A stretch of 64,000 nucleotides of DNA from contig NZ_CP130831.1 in NCBI RefSeq assembly GCF_030549525.1, forward strand, positions 3,869,501 to 3,933,500, written 5' to 3'. Under the pieces are notes generated by a model, which saw only the letters and a list, made by a program, of their open reading frames with translations, was not told where the DNA came from and searched no databases. The translations under genes were made by a program, and so were the position numbers. Origin of the DNA: Stenotrophomonas sp. 704A1 (GTDB lineage Bacteria; Pseudomonadota; Gammaproteobacteria; Xanthomonadales; Xanthomonadaceae). Shown in pieces: positions 26,354 through 55,197 of the stretch (position 1 is its first letter; every line of letters begins with the position of its first letter).

Positions 26354-26880
26354 CCCACGCCCTGCGTGGATGCTTCTGTAGCGTCGAGCCATGCTCGACT
26401 CATCCCCTCATCGCGCGAAGAACAGCCGAGCATGGCTCGGCTCTACAGAAAGCCGATCCCGCGAGCAGATCAATCCAGGCCCTGCGTGGGTGCTTCTGTA
26501 GCGTCGAGCCATGCTCGACTCATCCCCTCATCGCGCGAAGAGCAGCCGAGCATGGCTCGGCTCTACAGAAAGCAGATCCCGCGAGCAGATCAATGCACGC
26601 CCTGCGTGGATGCTTCTGTAGCGTCGAGCCATGCTCGACTCATCCCCTCATCGCGCGAAGAGCAGCCGAGCATGGCTCGGCTCTACAGAAAGCCGATCCC
26701 GCGAGCAACCCAGCCCACGCCCTGCGTGGATGGGTCTGTAGCGTCGAGCCATGCTCGACTCATCCCCTCATCGCGCGAAGAACAGCCGAGCATGGCTCGG
26801 CTCTACAGAAAGCAGATCCCGCGAGCAACCCAGCCCACGCCCTGCGTGGATGCTTCTGTAGCGTCGAGCCATGCTCGACG
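26354..26880. repeat. Tandem array of 120-bp units made of SMAG pairs (4.4 copies)
   Basis: Four full units (26354-26473, 26474-26593, 26594-26713, 26714-26833) and a 47-bp fifth, period exactly 120 bp, nearly identical. Each unit has one SMAG in plus orientation (e.g. 26377-26401, GTAGCGTCGAGC-CATG type) and one in minus orientation (e.g. 26423-26446, ending GCTCTAC), plus spacers CCCTCATCGCGCGAAGA and GATCCCGCGAGCA. Differences are confined to a few spacer positions (CAGATCAAT versus CAACCCAGC). The array fills the gap between the stops of the LysR gene and smeP. No gene is present; 120 being a multiple of three lets frames run through. Confidence 0.95.
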
Positions 26881-45552: not shown

Positions 45553-45864
45553 GTAGCGCCGGGCCATGCCCGGCGGGCCATGCCCGGCGGGCCATGCCCG
45601 GCGGGCCATGCCCGGCGGAACATGCCCGGCGGAACATGCCCGGCGGGCCATGCCCGGCGGGCCATGCCCGGCGGGCCATGCCCGGCGGGCCATGCCCGGC
45701 GGAACATGCCCGGCGGAACATGCCCGGCGGGCCATGCCCGGCGGAACATGCCCGGCGGAACATGCCCGGCGGAACATGCCCGGCGGAACATGCCCGGCGG
45801 AACATGCCCGGCGGAATGCGGAGAGCGCCGCGCTGCGCGCTCGCCGGGCATGGCCCGGCGCTAC
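45553..45864. repeat. 18-copy 14-bp minisatellite inside a SMAG pair
   Basis: Eighteen 14-bp units without a break from 45561 to 45812. Two versions alternate: A = GGGCCATGCCCGGC and B = GGAACATGCCCGGC, in the order AAAABBAAAABBABBBBB. The array is headed by GTAGCGCC (45553-45560), the 5' end of a SMAG, and followed by an intact inverted SMAG ending GGCGCTAC (45842-45864). Unit A is the SMAG palindrome core itself; B loses the symmetry. So a SMAG arm has expanded by slippage. It lies between the metallopeptidase gene and maeB. Confidence 0.95.
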
Positions 45865-51387: not shown

Positions 51388-54033
51388 ATGTACTGGCTCA
51401 GCCGCCACCGCCAGCTGTTGCTGACCCTGCTGGTGATGGTCGGCGGTACGCTGCTGTGCGCGGCGGCCGCAGGCCATTACGCCTGGCGCCGCGCGCTGGC
51501 CAGCGAAAGCGCGCAGGTCCAGCGACAGCTGCAGCTGTACGGCCAGGGCCTGCAGCAGCGCATCGATCGCTTTGGCACCCTGCCACAGGTCATGGCGCTC
51601 GACCCGGACCTGCAGCAGGCATTGCGCCAGCCAGTCTCGCCCGCTGAACGGCAGCGCCTGAATCTCAAGCTGCATCGTGCCAACCAGGTCACCCGGACCT
51701 CGACCCTGACCCTGGTCGGCCGTGACGGCGTCGCGGTGGCCGCCAGCAACTTCGACCAGCCGACCAGCAATGTCGGCGAGGACTACAGCTACCGCCCGTA
51801 CTACCAGCAGGCCCTGGCCCATGGCCGCGGCCGCTTCTACGGCATCGGCATGACCACCGGCGTGCCGGGGTATTTCATGTCCGAGGCGATCCTGGATGGC
51901 GACAGCCAGCGCATCGGCGTGATCGTGATCAAGATCGAGCTGTCGGCACTGGAACAGGAATGGTTGAGCAGCCCCGACGTGGTGCTGGCCAGCGACAACC
52001 ATGACGTGGTGTTCCTGGCCAACCGCGATGCCTGGCGCTACCGCCTGCTGCGGCCACTGGGCAATGATGAGCGGCGCGAGATGCTCGATGCCCGCCAGTA
52101 CGCTGACCGTTCGCTGCAGCCGCTGCGCGTGCGCACCGAGGACGTGCTGGCCGATGGCGGGCGGATGGTGCGCCTGCTCGACCCCGCACTGCCGCAGGCC
52201 ATGCTGTGGCAGACCCTGCCGCTCCCCGATGAACACTGGAGCCTGCACCTGCTGCACGATGCCAGCGCCGCCGCCGGCGCCGGCCGTAGCGCCGCCCTGG
52301 CCGGCGCCGCAGCCTGGTTGGCACTGGGCTTCCTGCTGTTGTTCGTGCAGCAGCGTCGGCGCCTGTCCAAGCATCGCCAGCGCAGCCGGCGCGAGCTGGA
52401 GACGCTGCTGAAACAGCACGCGCAGGAACTGCGTACCGCCCAGGATGGCCTGCTGCAGGCCGCCACCGATGCCGACAGTGGGCTCAGCCGCAGCCTGGAA
52501 CACCTGCCGCAGGGCGTGGTGATCATCGACCGCGACCAGCGCCTGGTGGCCTGGAATTCGCGCTACCTGGAGCTGTTCCGTTTCCCGGCGGGTCTGGTCC
52601 GGGTCGGGCGTCCGATCGAGGAGCTGTTCCGCTTCAACGCCCGCCGCGGCCTGCTTGGGCCGGGCCCGATCGATGAGGCCATCGAGCGCCGCCTGACCCA
52701 CCTGCGCAGTGGCCGCCCGCACATGCGCGAAAGCGAGAAGGACGACGGCACGGTGCTGGAGATCCGTGGCAACCCGCTGCCCGATGGCGGCTTCGTCACC
52801 AGCTATGCCGACATCACCAGCTACAAGAACGCCGCGCGCGAACTGCGTTCGCTGGCCGATGCGCTCGAGCACCGCATCGCCGAGCGCACCCACGACCTGG
52901 ACGAAGCCCGCCGCGAAGCCGAGCAGGCCAACCGCTACAAGACCCGCTTCGTCGCCTCGGCCGTGCACGACCTGCTGCAGCCGCTGAACGCGGCGCGCAT
53001 GTTCGTGTCGGTGCTGCGCGGCAAGCTGGGCGACCCCACGCAGCAGCAGACCGCCGATCACATCGATGCCGCGCTGGCGGCACAGGATGCGATCCTCAAC
53101 AGCCTGCTGGATATCGCGCGGCTGGAATCGGGCAGCCTGCCGACCCGTGTGCAGGCGTTCCGGCTGGGGCCACTGCTGCAGACGCTGGCGCGCGAGTTCG
53201 GCATCGCCGCGCAGTCACGCGGGCTGGTGGTGGATTGGGTCGACACCAACGCGGTGGTGGTCAGCGATGAAGCGCTGCTGCGGCGCATCCTGCAGAATTT
53301 CCTGTCCAACGCGCTGCGCTACAGCGAGCGCGGCCGCGTGCTGCTCGGCTGCCGCCGCCGCGGCGGCCTGCTGTGGATCGAGGTGCACGACCAGGGCCCG
53401 GGCATTCCCGATGCGCTGCAGGGCGAGATCTTCGAGGAGTTCCGCCGCCTGCATGATGGTCAGCAGCGCGGTGCCGGGCTCGGCCTGGCGATCGTCGACC
53501 GCATCGGCCGCCTGCTCGGCCACCCGATCCGGCTGCGCTCGCAGCTGGGCCAGGGCAGCGTGTTCGCGGTGGGCGTGCCGTTCGGCGACGCCAGCGCGAT
53601 TCCCGCCACCGCCCCCGCGCCGGTGCTGGTGCAGGAACCGGCGACGGACAATCCGCTGCGTGCGCGCAGGATATGGGTGGTGGATGACGATCCGCACGTG
53701 TGTGCAGCCAGCCGTGCCCTGCTGGAGCGCTGGGGCTGCGAGGTGATGCTGGCCGATGGACCGCAGGCCGCGCTGCAGGCCGCTGCTGCCGATGCGGTGC
53801 CCGAGCTGGTGCTGCTGGACGTGCGCATGGGCGACCACCACGGCCCGGTGCTGTACGAGACCCTGGCGGCACGCTGGCAGGCGCGGCCGCCGGTGGTGCT
53901 GGTCACCGCTGAACGCGATGCGGGATTGCGCGAGATGGCGGCCGAGCGTGGCTGGGGGCTGATGGCCAAGCCGGTCAAGCCGCCGGCGCTGCGGGCGCTG
54001 ATGAGTCAGTTGCTGGTCCGCCATCGCGGGTGA
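51388..54033 (+). CDS. Hybrid sensor histidine kinase with periplasmic Cache-like domain
   Basis: 881 residues. TM helix ~8-30, a periplasmic Cache/DctB-like sensor (~35-295; VGEDYSYRPYYQQALAHGRGRFYGIGMTTGVPGYFMSEAI is typical), TM helix ~300-322, a coiled coil, a PAS domain (~370-490; PQGVVIIDRDQRLVAWNSRYLELF), HisKA with the phosphorylated His in FVASAVHDLLQPLNAARMF, HATPase (NFLSNALRYSERGRVLLG; DQGPGIP; RGAGLGLAIVDRIGRLLG) and a C-terminal receiver with Asp in ELVLLDVRMGD. DctB-type Cache domains bind C4-dicarboxylates, which fits the adjacent dctA and porin. It converges with a NarL/LuxR response regulator, probably its partner. Confidence 0.9.
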   Translation: MYWLSRHRQLLLTLLVMVGGTLLCAAAAGHYAWRRALASESAQVQRQLQLYGQGLQQRIDRFGTLPQVMALDPDLQQALRQPVSPAERQRLNLKLHRANQVTRTSTLTLVGRDGVAVAASNFDQPTSNVGEDYSYRPYYQQALAHGRGRFYGIGMTTGVPGYFMSEAILDGDSQRIGVIVIKIELSALEQEWLSSPDVVLASDNHDVVFLANRDAWRYRLLRPLGNDERREMLDARQYADRSLQPLRVRTEDVLADGGRMVRLLDPALPQAMLWQTLPLPDEHWSLHLLHDASAAAGAGRSAALAGAAAWLALGFLLLFVQQRRRLSKHRQRSRRELETLLKQHAQELRTAQDGLLQAATDADSGLSRSLEHLPQGVVIIDRDQRLVAWNSRYLELFRFPAGLVRVGRPIEELFRFNARRGLLGPGPIDEAIERRLTHLRSGRPHMRESEKDDGTVLEIRGNPLPDGGFVTSYADITSYKNAARELRSLADALEHRIAERTHDLDEARREAEQANRYKTRFVASAVHDLLQPLNAARMFVSVLRGKLGDPTQQQTADHIDAALAAQDAILNSLLDIARLESGSLPTRVQAFRLGPLLQTLAREFGIAAQSRGLVVDWVDTNAVVVSDEALLRRILQNFLSNALRYSERGRVLLGCRRRGGLLWIEVHDQGPGIPDALQGEIFEEFRRLHDGQQRGAGLGLAIVDRIGRLLGHPIRLRSQLGQGSVFAVGVPFGDASAIPATAPAPVLVQEPATDNPLRARRIWVVDDDPHVCAASRALLERWGCEVMLADGPQAALQAAAADAVPELVLLDVRMGDHHGPVLYETLAARWQARPPVVLVTAERDAGLREMAAERGWGLMAKPVKPPALRALMSQLLVRHRG

Positions 54034-54545
54034 TTCCAGCCAACGGCGCAGCCCTCGTGGGTGGTGTCTGGTTGGTCGTGGAAAGCAAATGCCGTGGGGG
54101 GGGCCGGTCGGGTTGGGTGCGCGGGGGACGCCGTGAATCCGTCCCTGGAGGCTTGGCAGCCGCATCCATGCGGCTGACACCGCCCGCGAACCCAACCCGA
54201 CCGGCCTCTGACATATTTCGGTGGCCTGCCACCCACGGAGAAGAAAAAGAAGATCAAAAGCGGATCGCGCGCTGGGCTTGCTCGTGTAAAGCCGAGCCCA
54301 TGCTCGGCTTCGCGGACCGGCCAGGCTGCCTTTGCTTTTGATCTTCTTTTCTCTTCCGTGGATGAATGCGCACGGAACCTGTCCGTGGCCGGGCAGGTGG
54401 GCTGCGCAGGGGCGTGAGCCGCATGGATGCGGCGACCGAGCTTACATGGACGTACTTGCAGCGGCCCCTGCGCAGTCCACCTGCCCGGCCTCACCCATGA
54501 CTGCTCTACGTGTCCACCCACGAGGGGCTGCGCCGTTGGCTGGAA
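54034..54545. repeat. Compound palindromic element, copy 2 (complete)
   Basis: Fills the whole gap between the convergent kinase and response-regulator genes. Outer inverted repeats 54034-54064 and 54514-54545 (31/32 nt, one-base bulge). Inside lie three large hairpins in series. A: 54102-54118 with 54190-54206 (17 of 17), with an apical AGCCGCAT/ATGCGGCT hairpin (54158-54175). B: 54233-54260 with 54335-54361, with apical AAGCCGAGC/GCTCGGCTT (54289-54310). C: 54389-54413 with 54464-54488, with apical CCGCAT/ATGCGG (54419-54432) beside a core (54429-54463) shared with 12255-12289. No coding frame is credible. Confidence 0.92.
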
Positions 54546-54546
54546 A

Positions 54547-55197
54547 CTACACGCCCGCGCCGGCGTCGCCTTCCGGCTCCAGTGCCTTCACCAGCACCGC
54601 CGCCTGGGTGCGGCTGTGGCATTCGAGCTTTTTCAGAATCGCGGTGACATGCACCTTCACCGTGTTCTCGGCCAGCCCCAGCGTATAGGCGATCTGCTTG
54701 TTGAGCAGGCCATCGGCCAGGCACAGCAGCACGCGGAACTGCTGCGGGGTCAGCTGGGCCAGGCGGCTGGCCAGCAGTGCGTCGGCCTCGGAACGTTCGG
54801 GGGCCATCGCCGGGAACCACAGCCCGCCATCGAGCACCGACTGCACCGCCTCGCCGATGGTCTCGGCCGGGGCCGACTTCGGGATGAAACCGGCTGCGCC
54901 GAACTGCTGCGCGCGGCGGATCACCCGCGGGTGATCGTTGGACGAGAGGATCACCACCGGAATGTCCGGATGCGAACCACGCACGTGCAGCAGCGCCGAA
55001 AAGCCGTGCGCACCGGGCATGGTCAGGTCGAGCAGCACCAGATCCACGTCCGGGTGGGCGTCGAGCGCCTCGGCCAGCGCATCGGCACTGGCCACTTCGC
55101 GCACCTGCGCCAGCGGCAGGCTCTGCCGCAATGACTGCACCACCGCCGACCGCAGCAGCGGATGGTCATCGGCGATCAGGATGGTGTATTCGCTCAT
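54547..55197 (-). CDS. NarL/LuxR-type response regulator
   Basis: 216 residues from the ATG at 55197. Receiver domain: DDHPLLR at the N-terminus, phosphoryl Asp in DLVLLDLTMPG, Ser of ILSSND and Lys of PKSAP. C-terminal LuxR helix-turn-helix: LTPQQFRVLLCLADGLLNKQIAYTLGLAENTVKVHVTAILKKL. Probable partner of the convergent hybrid kinase. The start has no ribosome-binding site, but TACAAT lies six nt upstream (55204-55209), so a leaderless transcript is likely. Stop abuts the compound palindromic element. Confidence 0.93.
   Translation of the reverse strand: MSEYTILIADDHPLLRSAVVQSLRQSLPLAQVREVASADALAEALDAHPDVDLVLLDLTMPGAHGFSALLHVRGSHPDIPVVILSSNDHPRVIRRAQQFGAAGFIPKSAPAETIGEAVQSVLDGGLWFPAMAPERSEADALLASRLAQLTPQQFRVLLCLADGLLNKQIAYTLGLAENTVKVHVTAILKKLECHSRTQAAVLVKALEPEGDAGAGV

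What the first reader, a model, noticed from the sequence alone, without database searches (positions are those of the whole stretch)
54034..54545. Compound palindrome: three serial hairpins enclosed by 31-nt inverted repeats
The complete gap between a convergent hybrid kinase and response regulator forms nested complementarity: outer arms 54034-54064/54514-54545, then hairpins A (54102-54206), B (54233-54361) and C (54389-54488), each with its own apical hairpin. This is much larger than SMAG or REP elements and codes for nothing. A transcript from either side would fold into a multi-arm structure. It could be a bidirectional terminator, a double-stranded RNA source, a non-autonomous mobile element, or a recombination target. 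I do not recognise it as a described family.
Basis: seen in the sequence. Interest (0 to 1): 0.75.

Follow-up and report, generated by a model that had tools for sequence, protein, structure and literature searches.

The report
Mirrored pair of GGA-loop RNA hairpins
The gap between two converging genes holds two mirror-image copies of a repeated RNA hairpin whose loops look like docking sites for the regulator CsrA/RsmA; related hairpins are scattered through many gammaproteobacterial genomes, which may be an overlooked, spread-out layer of gene control.

Summary
In detail: coordinates are right and the fold lies 13 SD below shuffles. It is a mosaic. Hairpins A and C are opposite-orientation copies of one ~120-nt unit, of which I count 54 at 36 places in this genome. 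B is a third hairpin with a GTAG REP (SM9, one mismatch) at its apex. A 31/32-nt inverted repeat encloses all three. The unit's long stem differs between copies but stays paired (28 of 39 pairs show double changes). It is topped by two hairpins with C-ANGGAY-G loops, the recalled CsrA/RsmA signature. On that strand the stems hold far more G·U than A·C (126 v 26), so one single strand is selected. Related units occur in 65 of 369 sampled genomes of the class. Nearest described family: Rfam TwoAYGGAY, predicted in print to bind CsrA; its model passes threshold nowhere in this genome. The orthologous gap is near-empty in three species and has a flipped interior in another. Best reading: a dispersed REP-like repeat that displays CsrA/RsmA sites when transcribed. 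Binding, transcription and spread are inferred; lack of orientation bias to genes counts against a simple 3'-UTR role.

The parts
   Evidence: ORF; orthologs found by tblastn
54034..54064 (.). outer inverted repeat, left arm
   Evidence: nearly the same in six relatives
54095..54215 (-). unit A, sense on the - strand (paired arms 54102-54125 / 54183-54206)
   Evidence: covariance model hit, (E 5.7e-24); arms
54163..54170 (-). unit A first loop, C-AUGGAU-G on the - strand
   Evidence: (complement on +)
54140..54147 (-). unit A second loop, C-AGGGAC-G on the - strand
   Evidence: (complement on +)
54233..54361 (.). hairpin B (inner arms 54245-54261 / 54334-54350)
54285..54309 (+). GTAG REP of class SM9 with one mismatch, at the apex of B
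   Evidence: position; SM9 sequence from PMC3686654 table, passages
54378..54497 (+). unit C, sense on the + strand (paired arms 54387-54413 / 54464-54490)
   Evidence: covariance model hit, (E 1.7e-23); arms
54422..54429 (+). unit C first loop, C-AUGGAU-G
54445..54452 (+). unit C second loop, C-AUGGAC-G
54514..54545 (.). outer inverted repeat, right arm
   Evidence: ORF; orthologs

Best explanation
The 512-nt compound is a mosaic of dispersed intergenic repeats: two inverted copies (A, C) of a ~120-nt palindromic RNA unit flank a third hairpin (B) that carries a GTAG REP, and an inverted repeat encloses all three. SHOWN: the unit is multicopy, its long stem is kept paired by double changes, and one particular single strand is the selected one; on that strand the stem is topped by two hairpins with C-ANGGAY-G loops whose second base is free. 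INFERRED: when that strand is transcribed, the two loops clamp a CsrA/RsmA dimer. As A and C point outward, readthrough from either converging gene would carry one sense unit, so the copies together act as spread-out RsmA-binding decoys or 3'-end modules. INFERRED: units and pairs spread as non-autonomous, REP-like elements.
For: 54 units at 36 places in the genome. 28 of 39 consensus pairs with double changes. Second loop C-A-N-GGA-Y-G with N free in 27 of 27 aligned units. In 107 units chosen by a core pattern that left these bases open, 103 have C-A-N before GGATG of the first loop. G·U 126 v A·C 26 in the unselected arms of those units; same direction in three model-found sets, 31/6, 37/7, 29/6. 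Loop starts 23 nt apart in unit C. One csrA in the genome. TwoAYGGAY was predicted to bind CsrA (PMC4333381, passages). Near-empty orthologous gaps in three species.
Against: No transcript and no binding data. Orientation to tandem genes is unbiased: 8 sense / 5 antisense in the own genome (read by eye), 7 / 12 in class loci, 18 / 24 in pattern-found units. Five of 65 unit-bearing genomes showed no csrA hit, one of them 98% complete; the association is p 0.085 over all genomes and p 0.015 only in those at least 90% complete. First-loop ATGGATG in the 27-unit alignment was my selection criterion, so its invariance there proves nothing. Minimum-energy folds do not show both loops cleanly. No sigma-70-like promoter in the gap. 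Folded single-stranded DNA would also give G·T over A·C.
Confidence: 0.5

Rival explanations
1. A REP/REPIN-like non-autonomous mobile element: the folded single-stranded DNA, GGA loops included, is what an unknown transposase or strand-transfer enzyme recognises; CsrA is irrelevant. Inverted pairs would be the mobile form, single units remnants.
For: Many dispersed copies, patchy occurrence (36 of 149 family genomes), no orientation bias, outward pairs 18 of 18 in the own genome, near-empty sites, REPs in and beside units.
Against: Only two Y1-transposase hits in the genome, about 50 and 65 kb from the nearest unit. The units lack a GTAG end. The free second base and fixed A, G, G, A of both loops fit a known RNA-binding protein and no transposase that I know.
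Confidence: 0.25
2. A plain structural 3' end: the long stems block exonucleases or end transcription for both converging genes; the loops are incidental.
For: Enriched in convergent gaps in pattern-found units (19 of 71 v 47 of 330 background gaps, p 0.013); very stable stems.
Against: No intrinsic terminator found in the gap. Does not explain conserved loops over variable stems. In the own genome most places are tandem (22 of 36).
Confidence: 0.12
3. An invertible DNA segment used as a switch, flipping between its outer 31/32-nt repeats.
For: In G005 the interior aligns to the own one inverted (80.7% over 482) better than directly (70% over 438).
Against: Seen only between species; other relatives are direct (G017, G021) or mixed (G022, G001, G008); the two halves are near-equivalent, so flipping changes little. 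I did not look for a recombinase.
Confidence: 0.04

Closest known systems
TwoAYGGAY RNA (Rfam RF01731)
   Same: Two hairpins with (AYGGAY-type) GGA loops, one strong and one weak, within an outer stem; units of the same covariance model overlap RF01731 hits in L271, L275, L298.
   Different: Window units score under threshold or not at all. Unit A's second loop is AGGGAC, not AYGGAY. Rfam's second stem is longer in the consensus printed. Dispersed multicopy and mirrored arrangement is not mentioned in the passages I saw.
GTAG REPs / SMAG / REPINs of Stenotrophomonas
   Same: Dispersed intergenic palindromes, often in inverted pairs; SM9 sits in hairpin B.
   Different: The unit is about four times longer, has no GTAG end, two apical hairpins and per-copy stem sequences.
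CsrB / RsmY / RsmZ sponge RNAs (recalled)
   Same: GGA loops that can hold CsrA/RsmA.
   Different: Those are dedicated RNAs; here many two-site hairpins are scattered and no transcript is shown. No such Rfam hit in 53800-54800.
RsmU of Xanthomonas campestris (PMC7694677, outline and passages)
   Same: An RsmA-binding RNA from a 3' UTR in the same order of bacteria.
   Different: Processed sRNA from one gene with no Rfam homologue; its GGA-changed form still bound RsmA in vitro, a caution for reading GGA as proof. I did not compare its sequence with the unit.

Membership tests
TwoAYGGAY (RF01731) | score at or above Rfam's gathering score (43 bits) | tested here: not met
   Own genome: 7 matches at E<=10, none over 43, best 41.3; units A and C of the window not among them, nor at E<=1. 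Elsewhere L275 and L298 pass in gathering mode and L271 in the permissive mode, of 44 sense units in 40 loci.
TwoAYGGAY (RF01731) | two hairpins with AYGGAY loops | tested here: inconclusive
   Unit C has AUGGAU and AUGGAC (met); unit A has AUGGAU and AGGGAC (second not AYGGAY).
CsrA/RsmA binding site | A-N-GGA in a hairpin loop closed by C-G, in pairs | tested here: met
   Both loops in 43 of 56 sense rows of the own genome, 28 of 33 in other families of the order, 36 of 44 across the class; 103 of 107 for the open bases of loop 1. The site definition is recalled.
CsrA/RsmA binding site | the protein binds the RNA | not testable with these tools
   needs a binding assay
REP / REPIN | short GTAG-tagged palindrome with a cognate RAYT | tested here: not met
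   Units have no GTAG end; two Y1_Tnp hits in the genome, none near a unit. Met only by the SM9 REP inside B for the sequence; its RAYT was not sought.
intrinsic terminator | G+C-rich hairpin followed by a T run | tested here: not met
   The one site found lies at 54605-54625, outside the gap; shuffle mean 0.7.

The most novel reading that the evidence does not exclude
A class-wide, mobile, distributed CsrA/RsmA sponge: a REP-like dispersed repeat that presents paired ANGGA hairpins at dozens of 3' ends and so ties the level of free RsmA to how much of the genome is read through. TwoAYGGAY as catalogued would be a small corner of this family.
Probability: 0.25. Interest if true: 0.85.

Novelty: new variant of a known kind. 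Interest (0 to 1): 0.6.

Why it matters
An orphan Rfam family appears to be the edge of a large, covarying, multicopy element in Gammaproteobacteria: named carriers include Marinobacter, Halopseudomonas, Vreelandella, Microbulbifer, Luteimonas and Methylomonas. If it binds CsrA/RsmA, part of a global regulatory system rests on a dispersed repeat. One binding assay or pull-down would settle the central claim.

Tried and rejected
Rfam on the gap: only hits far under threshold, mostly microRNA families. Coding: several ORFs run through the gap, but by inspection they follow the palindromes; no protein search was made. RAYT association: two Y1_Tnp hits, not near units. Phage carriage: three viral contigs hold the second-hairpin core; I looked at one. 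A first ortholog-gap script translated the regulator in a wrong frame and gave wrong gaps; only the corrected one search is used. 'Pairs always outward' holds in the own genome (18 of 18), for 8 of 8 close pairs that I read by eye in two f7 genomes and for three class loci, but not everywhere: G745 has a same-direction tandem array, and G766 and G550 have same-direction neighbours beside outward ones.

Limits of the counts: the 27-unit alignment took only units with an exact ATGGATG loop and a tail motif, so loop-1 invariance there is by selection. Of 74 model matches I left out 20 mirror-strand overlaps to count 54 units; 9 of the 54 are weak, short or long variants. One search scored 150 of 6708 candidates; searches scored only 59, 24, 9 and 9 candidates per genome, so copy counts are floors. 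In one search, 28 of 121 units looked intragenic and 22 lacked a flank; these 50 were left out. The gene finders are crude. In one search, 14, 4 and 1 mirror-strand rows were dropped, and two rows counted as misses (L067 -, L087 -) are also mirror hits. In one search the 27 positive genomes of 398 all lie in the own class; how many of the 398 lie outside it was not shown. The csrA comparison was made by eye between the lists.

Full report
WHAT IS THERE. The window lies at 3869501-3933500 of an unnamed 4.69-Mb single-contig genome. It is probably Stenotrophomonas; I infer that from its REP class, and no tool names it. Hairpin A (- strand) and hairpin C (+ strand) are the same kind of unit; they appear as 87-nt inverted arms at 75%. 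B has another sequence and carries an SM9 REP with one mismatch at 54285-54309.

A REPEATED UNIT. A DNA search with the compound gave 56 matches in the own genome, mirror matches included, with one other full-length copy at 72%. I aligned 27 units from 19 loci and folded them together: 39 consensus pairs, 28 with double changes. A covariance model, R1, found 74 matches at E<=0.01, the best 45 at E<=5.4e-16. After leaving out 20 mirror-strand overlaps I count 54 units at 36 places. By a crude gene finder none of the 36 is inside a gene: 22 tandem, 11 convergent, 3 divergent, against 26/9/8 for the gene pairs of the window. Eighteen pairs lie within 500 bp, 18 of 18 with sense strands pointing outward.

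WHAT IS CONSERVED. The arms vary from copy to copy and stay complementary. The loops read C-ATGGAT-G and C-A-N-GGA-Y-G. The first is fixed in the 27 because I selected for it; in the second, C, A, G, G, A and the closing G are invariant in 27 of 27 without selection on those bases. In other families of the order the arms are unrelated between copies and the first loop becomes A-N-GGA-T, although the model was built on ATGGATG. Both loops are present in 43 of 56 sense rows of the own genome, 28 of 33 in other families of the order and 36 of 44 across the class; the misses include long variants, short units and rows with altered loops. These sets lean towards the model, so I also took 107 units found in named genomes by a pattern that fixed only part of the core. 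103 of 107 have C-A-N before GGATG, and their unselected arms show 126 G·U against 26 A·C. The model-found sets show 31/6, 37/7 and 29/6. A DNA cruciform would give no such asymmetry; RNA, or one DNA strand, would.

DISTRIBUTION. Units at the stated cut-offs: 32 of 61 relatives, of which 28 of 37 in the genus with the own genome; 36 of 149 family genomes, 15 of 54 genera; 65 of 369 class genomes; 27 of 398 phylum genomes, all in the own class.

HOW IT MAY WORK. C-ANGGAN-G loops in pairs about 20 nt apart are the recalled signature of CsrA/RsmA sites; in unit C the loops start 23 nt apart. The genome has one csrA with an ordinary sequence. Gardner and Eldai matched TwoAYGGAY to a CsrA-site model (PMC4333381, passages). 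Of 369 class genomes 313 have csrA; 60 of the 65 unit-bearers do. Fisher p is 0.085 over all and 0.015 in genomes at least 90% complete, so this support is weak, and G399, 98% complete, has units and no csrA hit. Orientation to genes is unbiased in three counts, which fits a repeat that spreads on either strand better than a fixed 3'-UTR element. On one transcript A and C could also pair with each other: -172.9 kcal/mol against -84.3 and -82.1 apart. That would hide the loops; it is a calculation only.

HISTORY OF THE SITE. Of 22 genomes with a match to the regulator gene, own included, the own genome and six relatives have the compound with nearly the same outer ends; in G008 the left unit is disrupted. 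In G003, G013 and G019 the genes are 10, 10 and -4 nt apart. G006 and G010 have other sequence there, G004 a 275-nt gap without the arms, and in the other nine no adjacent ortholog of the upstream gene was recognised. Whether the short gaps are ancestral or deletions is not shown. In G005 the interior matches the own one inverted (80.7% over 482) better than directly (70% over 438), while G017 is direct at 98%.

RELATION TO KNOWN THINGS. Rfam's TwoAYGGAY model hits 6 units and one fragment in this genome, none over threshold, and passes in three of the class loci. I therefore call the unit a relative, not a member. A preprint calls the motif relatively unexplored and notes that its two hairpins differ in stability (PMC11661157, passages), as here. 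Text searches gave no paper that, from the listings and passages I saw, describes a dispersed repeat with CsrA-type loops; most subscription papers are not held and supplements could not be read.

Noticed in passing
L314:1888-3323 (G745): Six tandem same-direction copies of a ~227-nt repeat, each with one unit and a REP-like palindrome: a candidate multi-site RNA.
   Followed up: partly
own genome 664448, 916379, 2045644, 3157837, 3615445, 2819463: Long variants of the unit with roughly 80 extra nt inside the core, seen as ~197-200-nt model hits.
   Followed up: no
window 26354-26879: Tandem array, 120-bp period, 4.4 copies at 94%, holding GTAG-REP-like palindromes.
   Followed up: no
window 45560-45816: 14-bp tandem repeat, about 18 copies, beside a long ORF on the - strand.
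   Followed up: no
L312:200-275 (viral contig): A unit-like core whose first hairpin looks replaced by a REP-type palindrome.
   Followed up: no
L307:1527-1710, 1761-1877, 2001-2120 (G442): A 6S RNA gene directly beside an outward pair of units.
   Followed up: no
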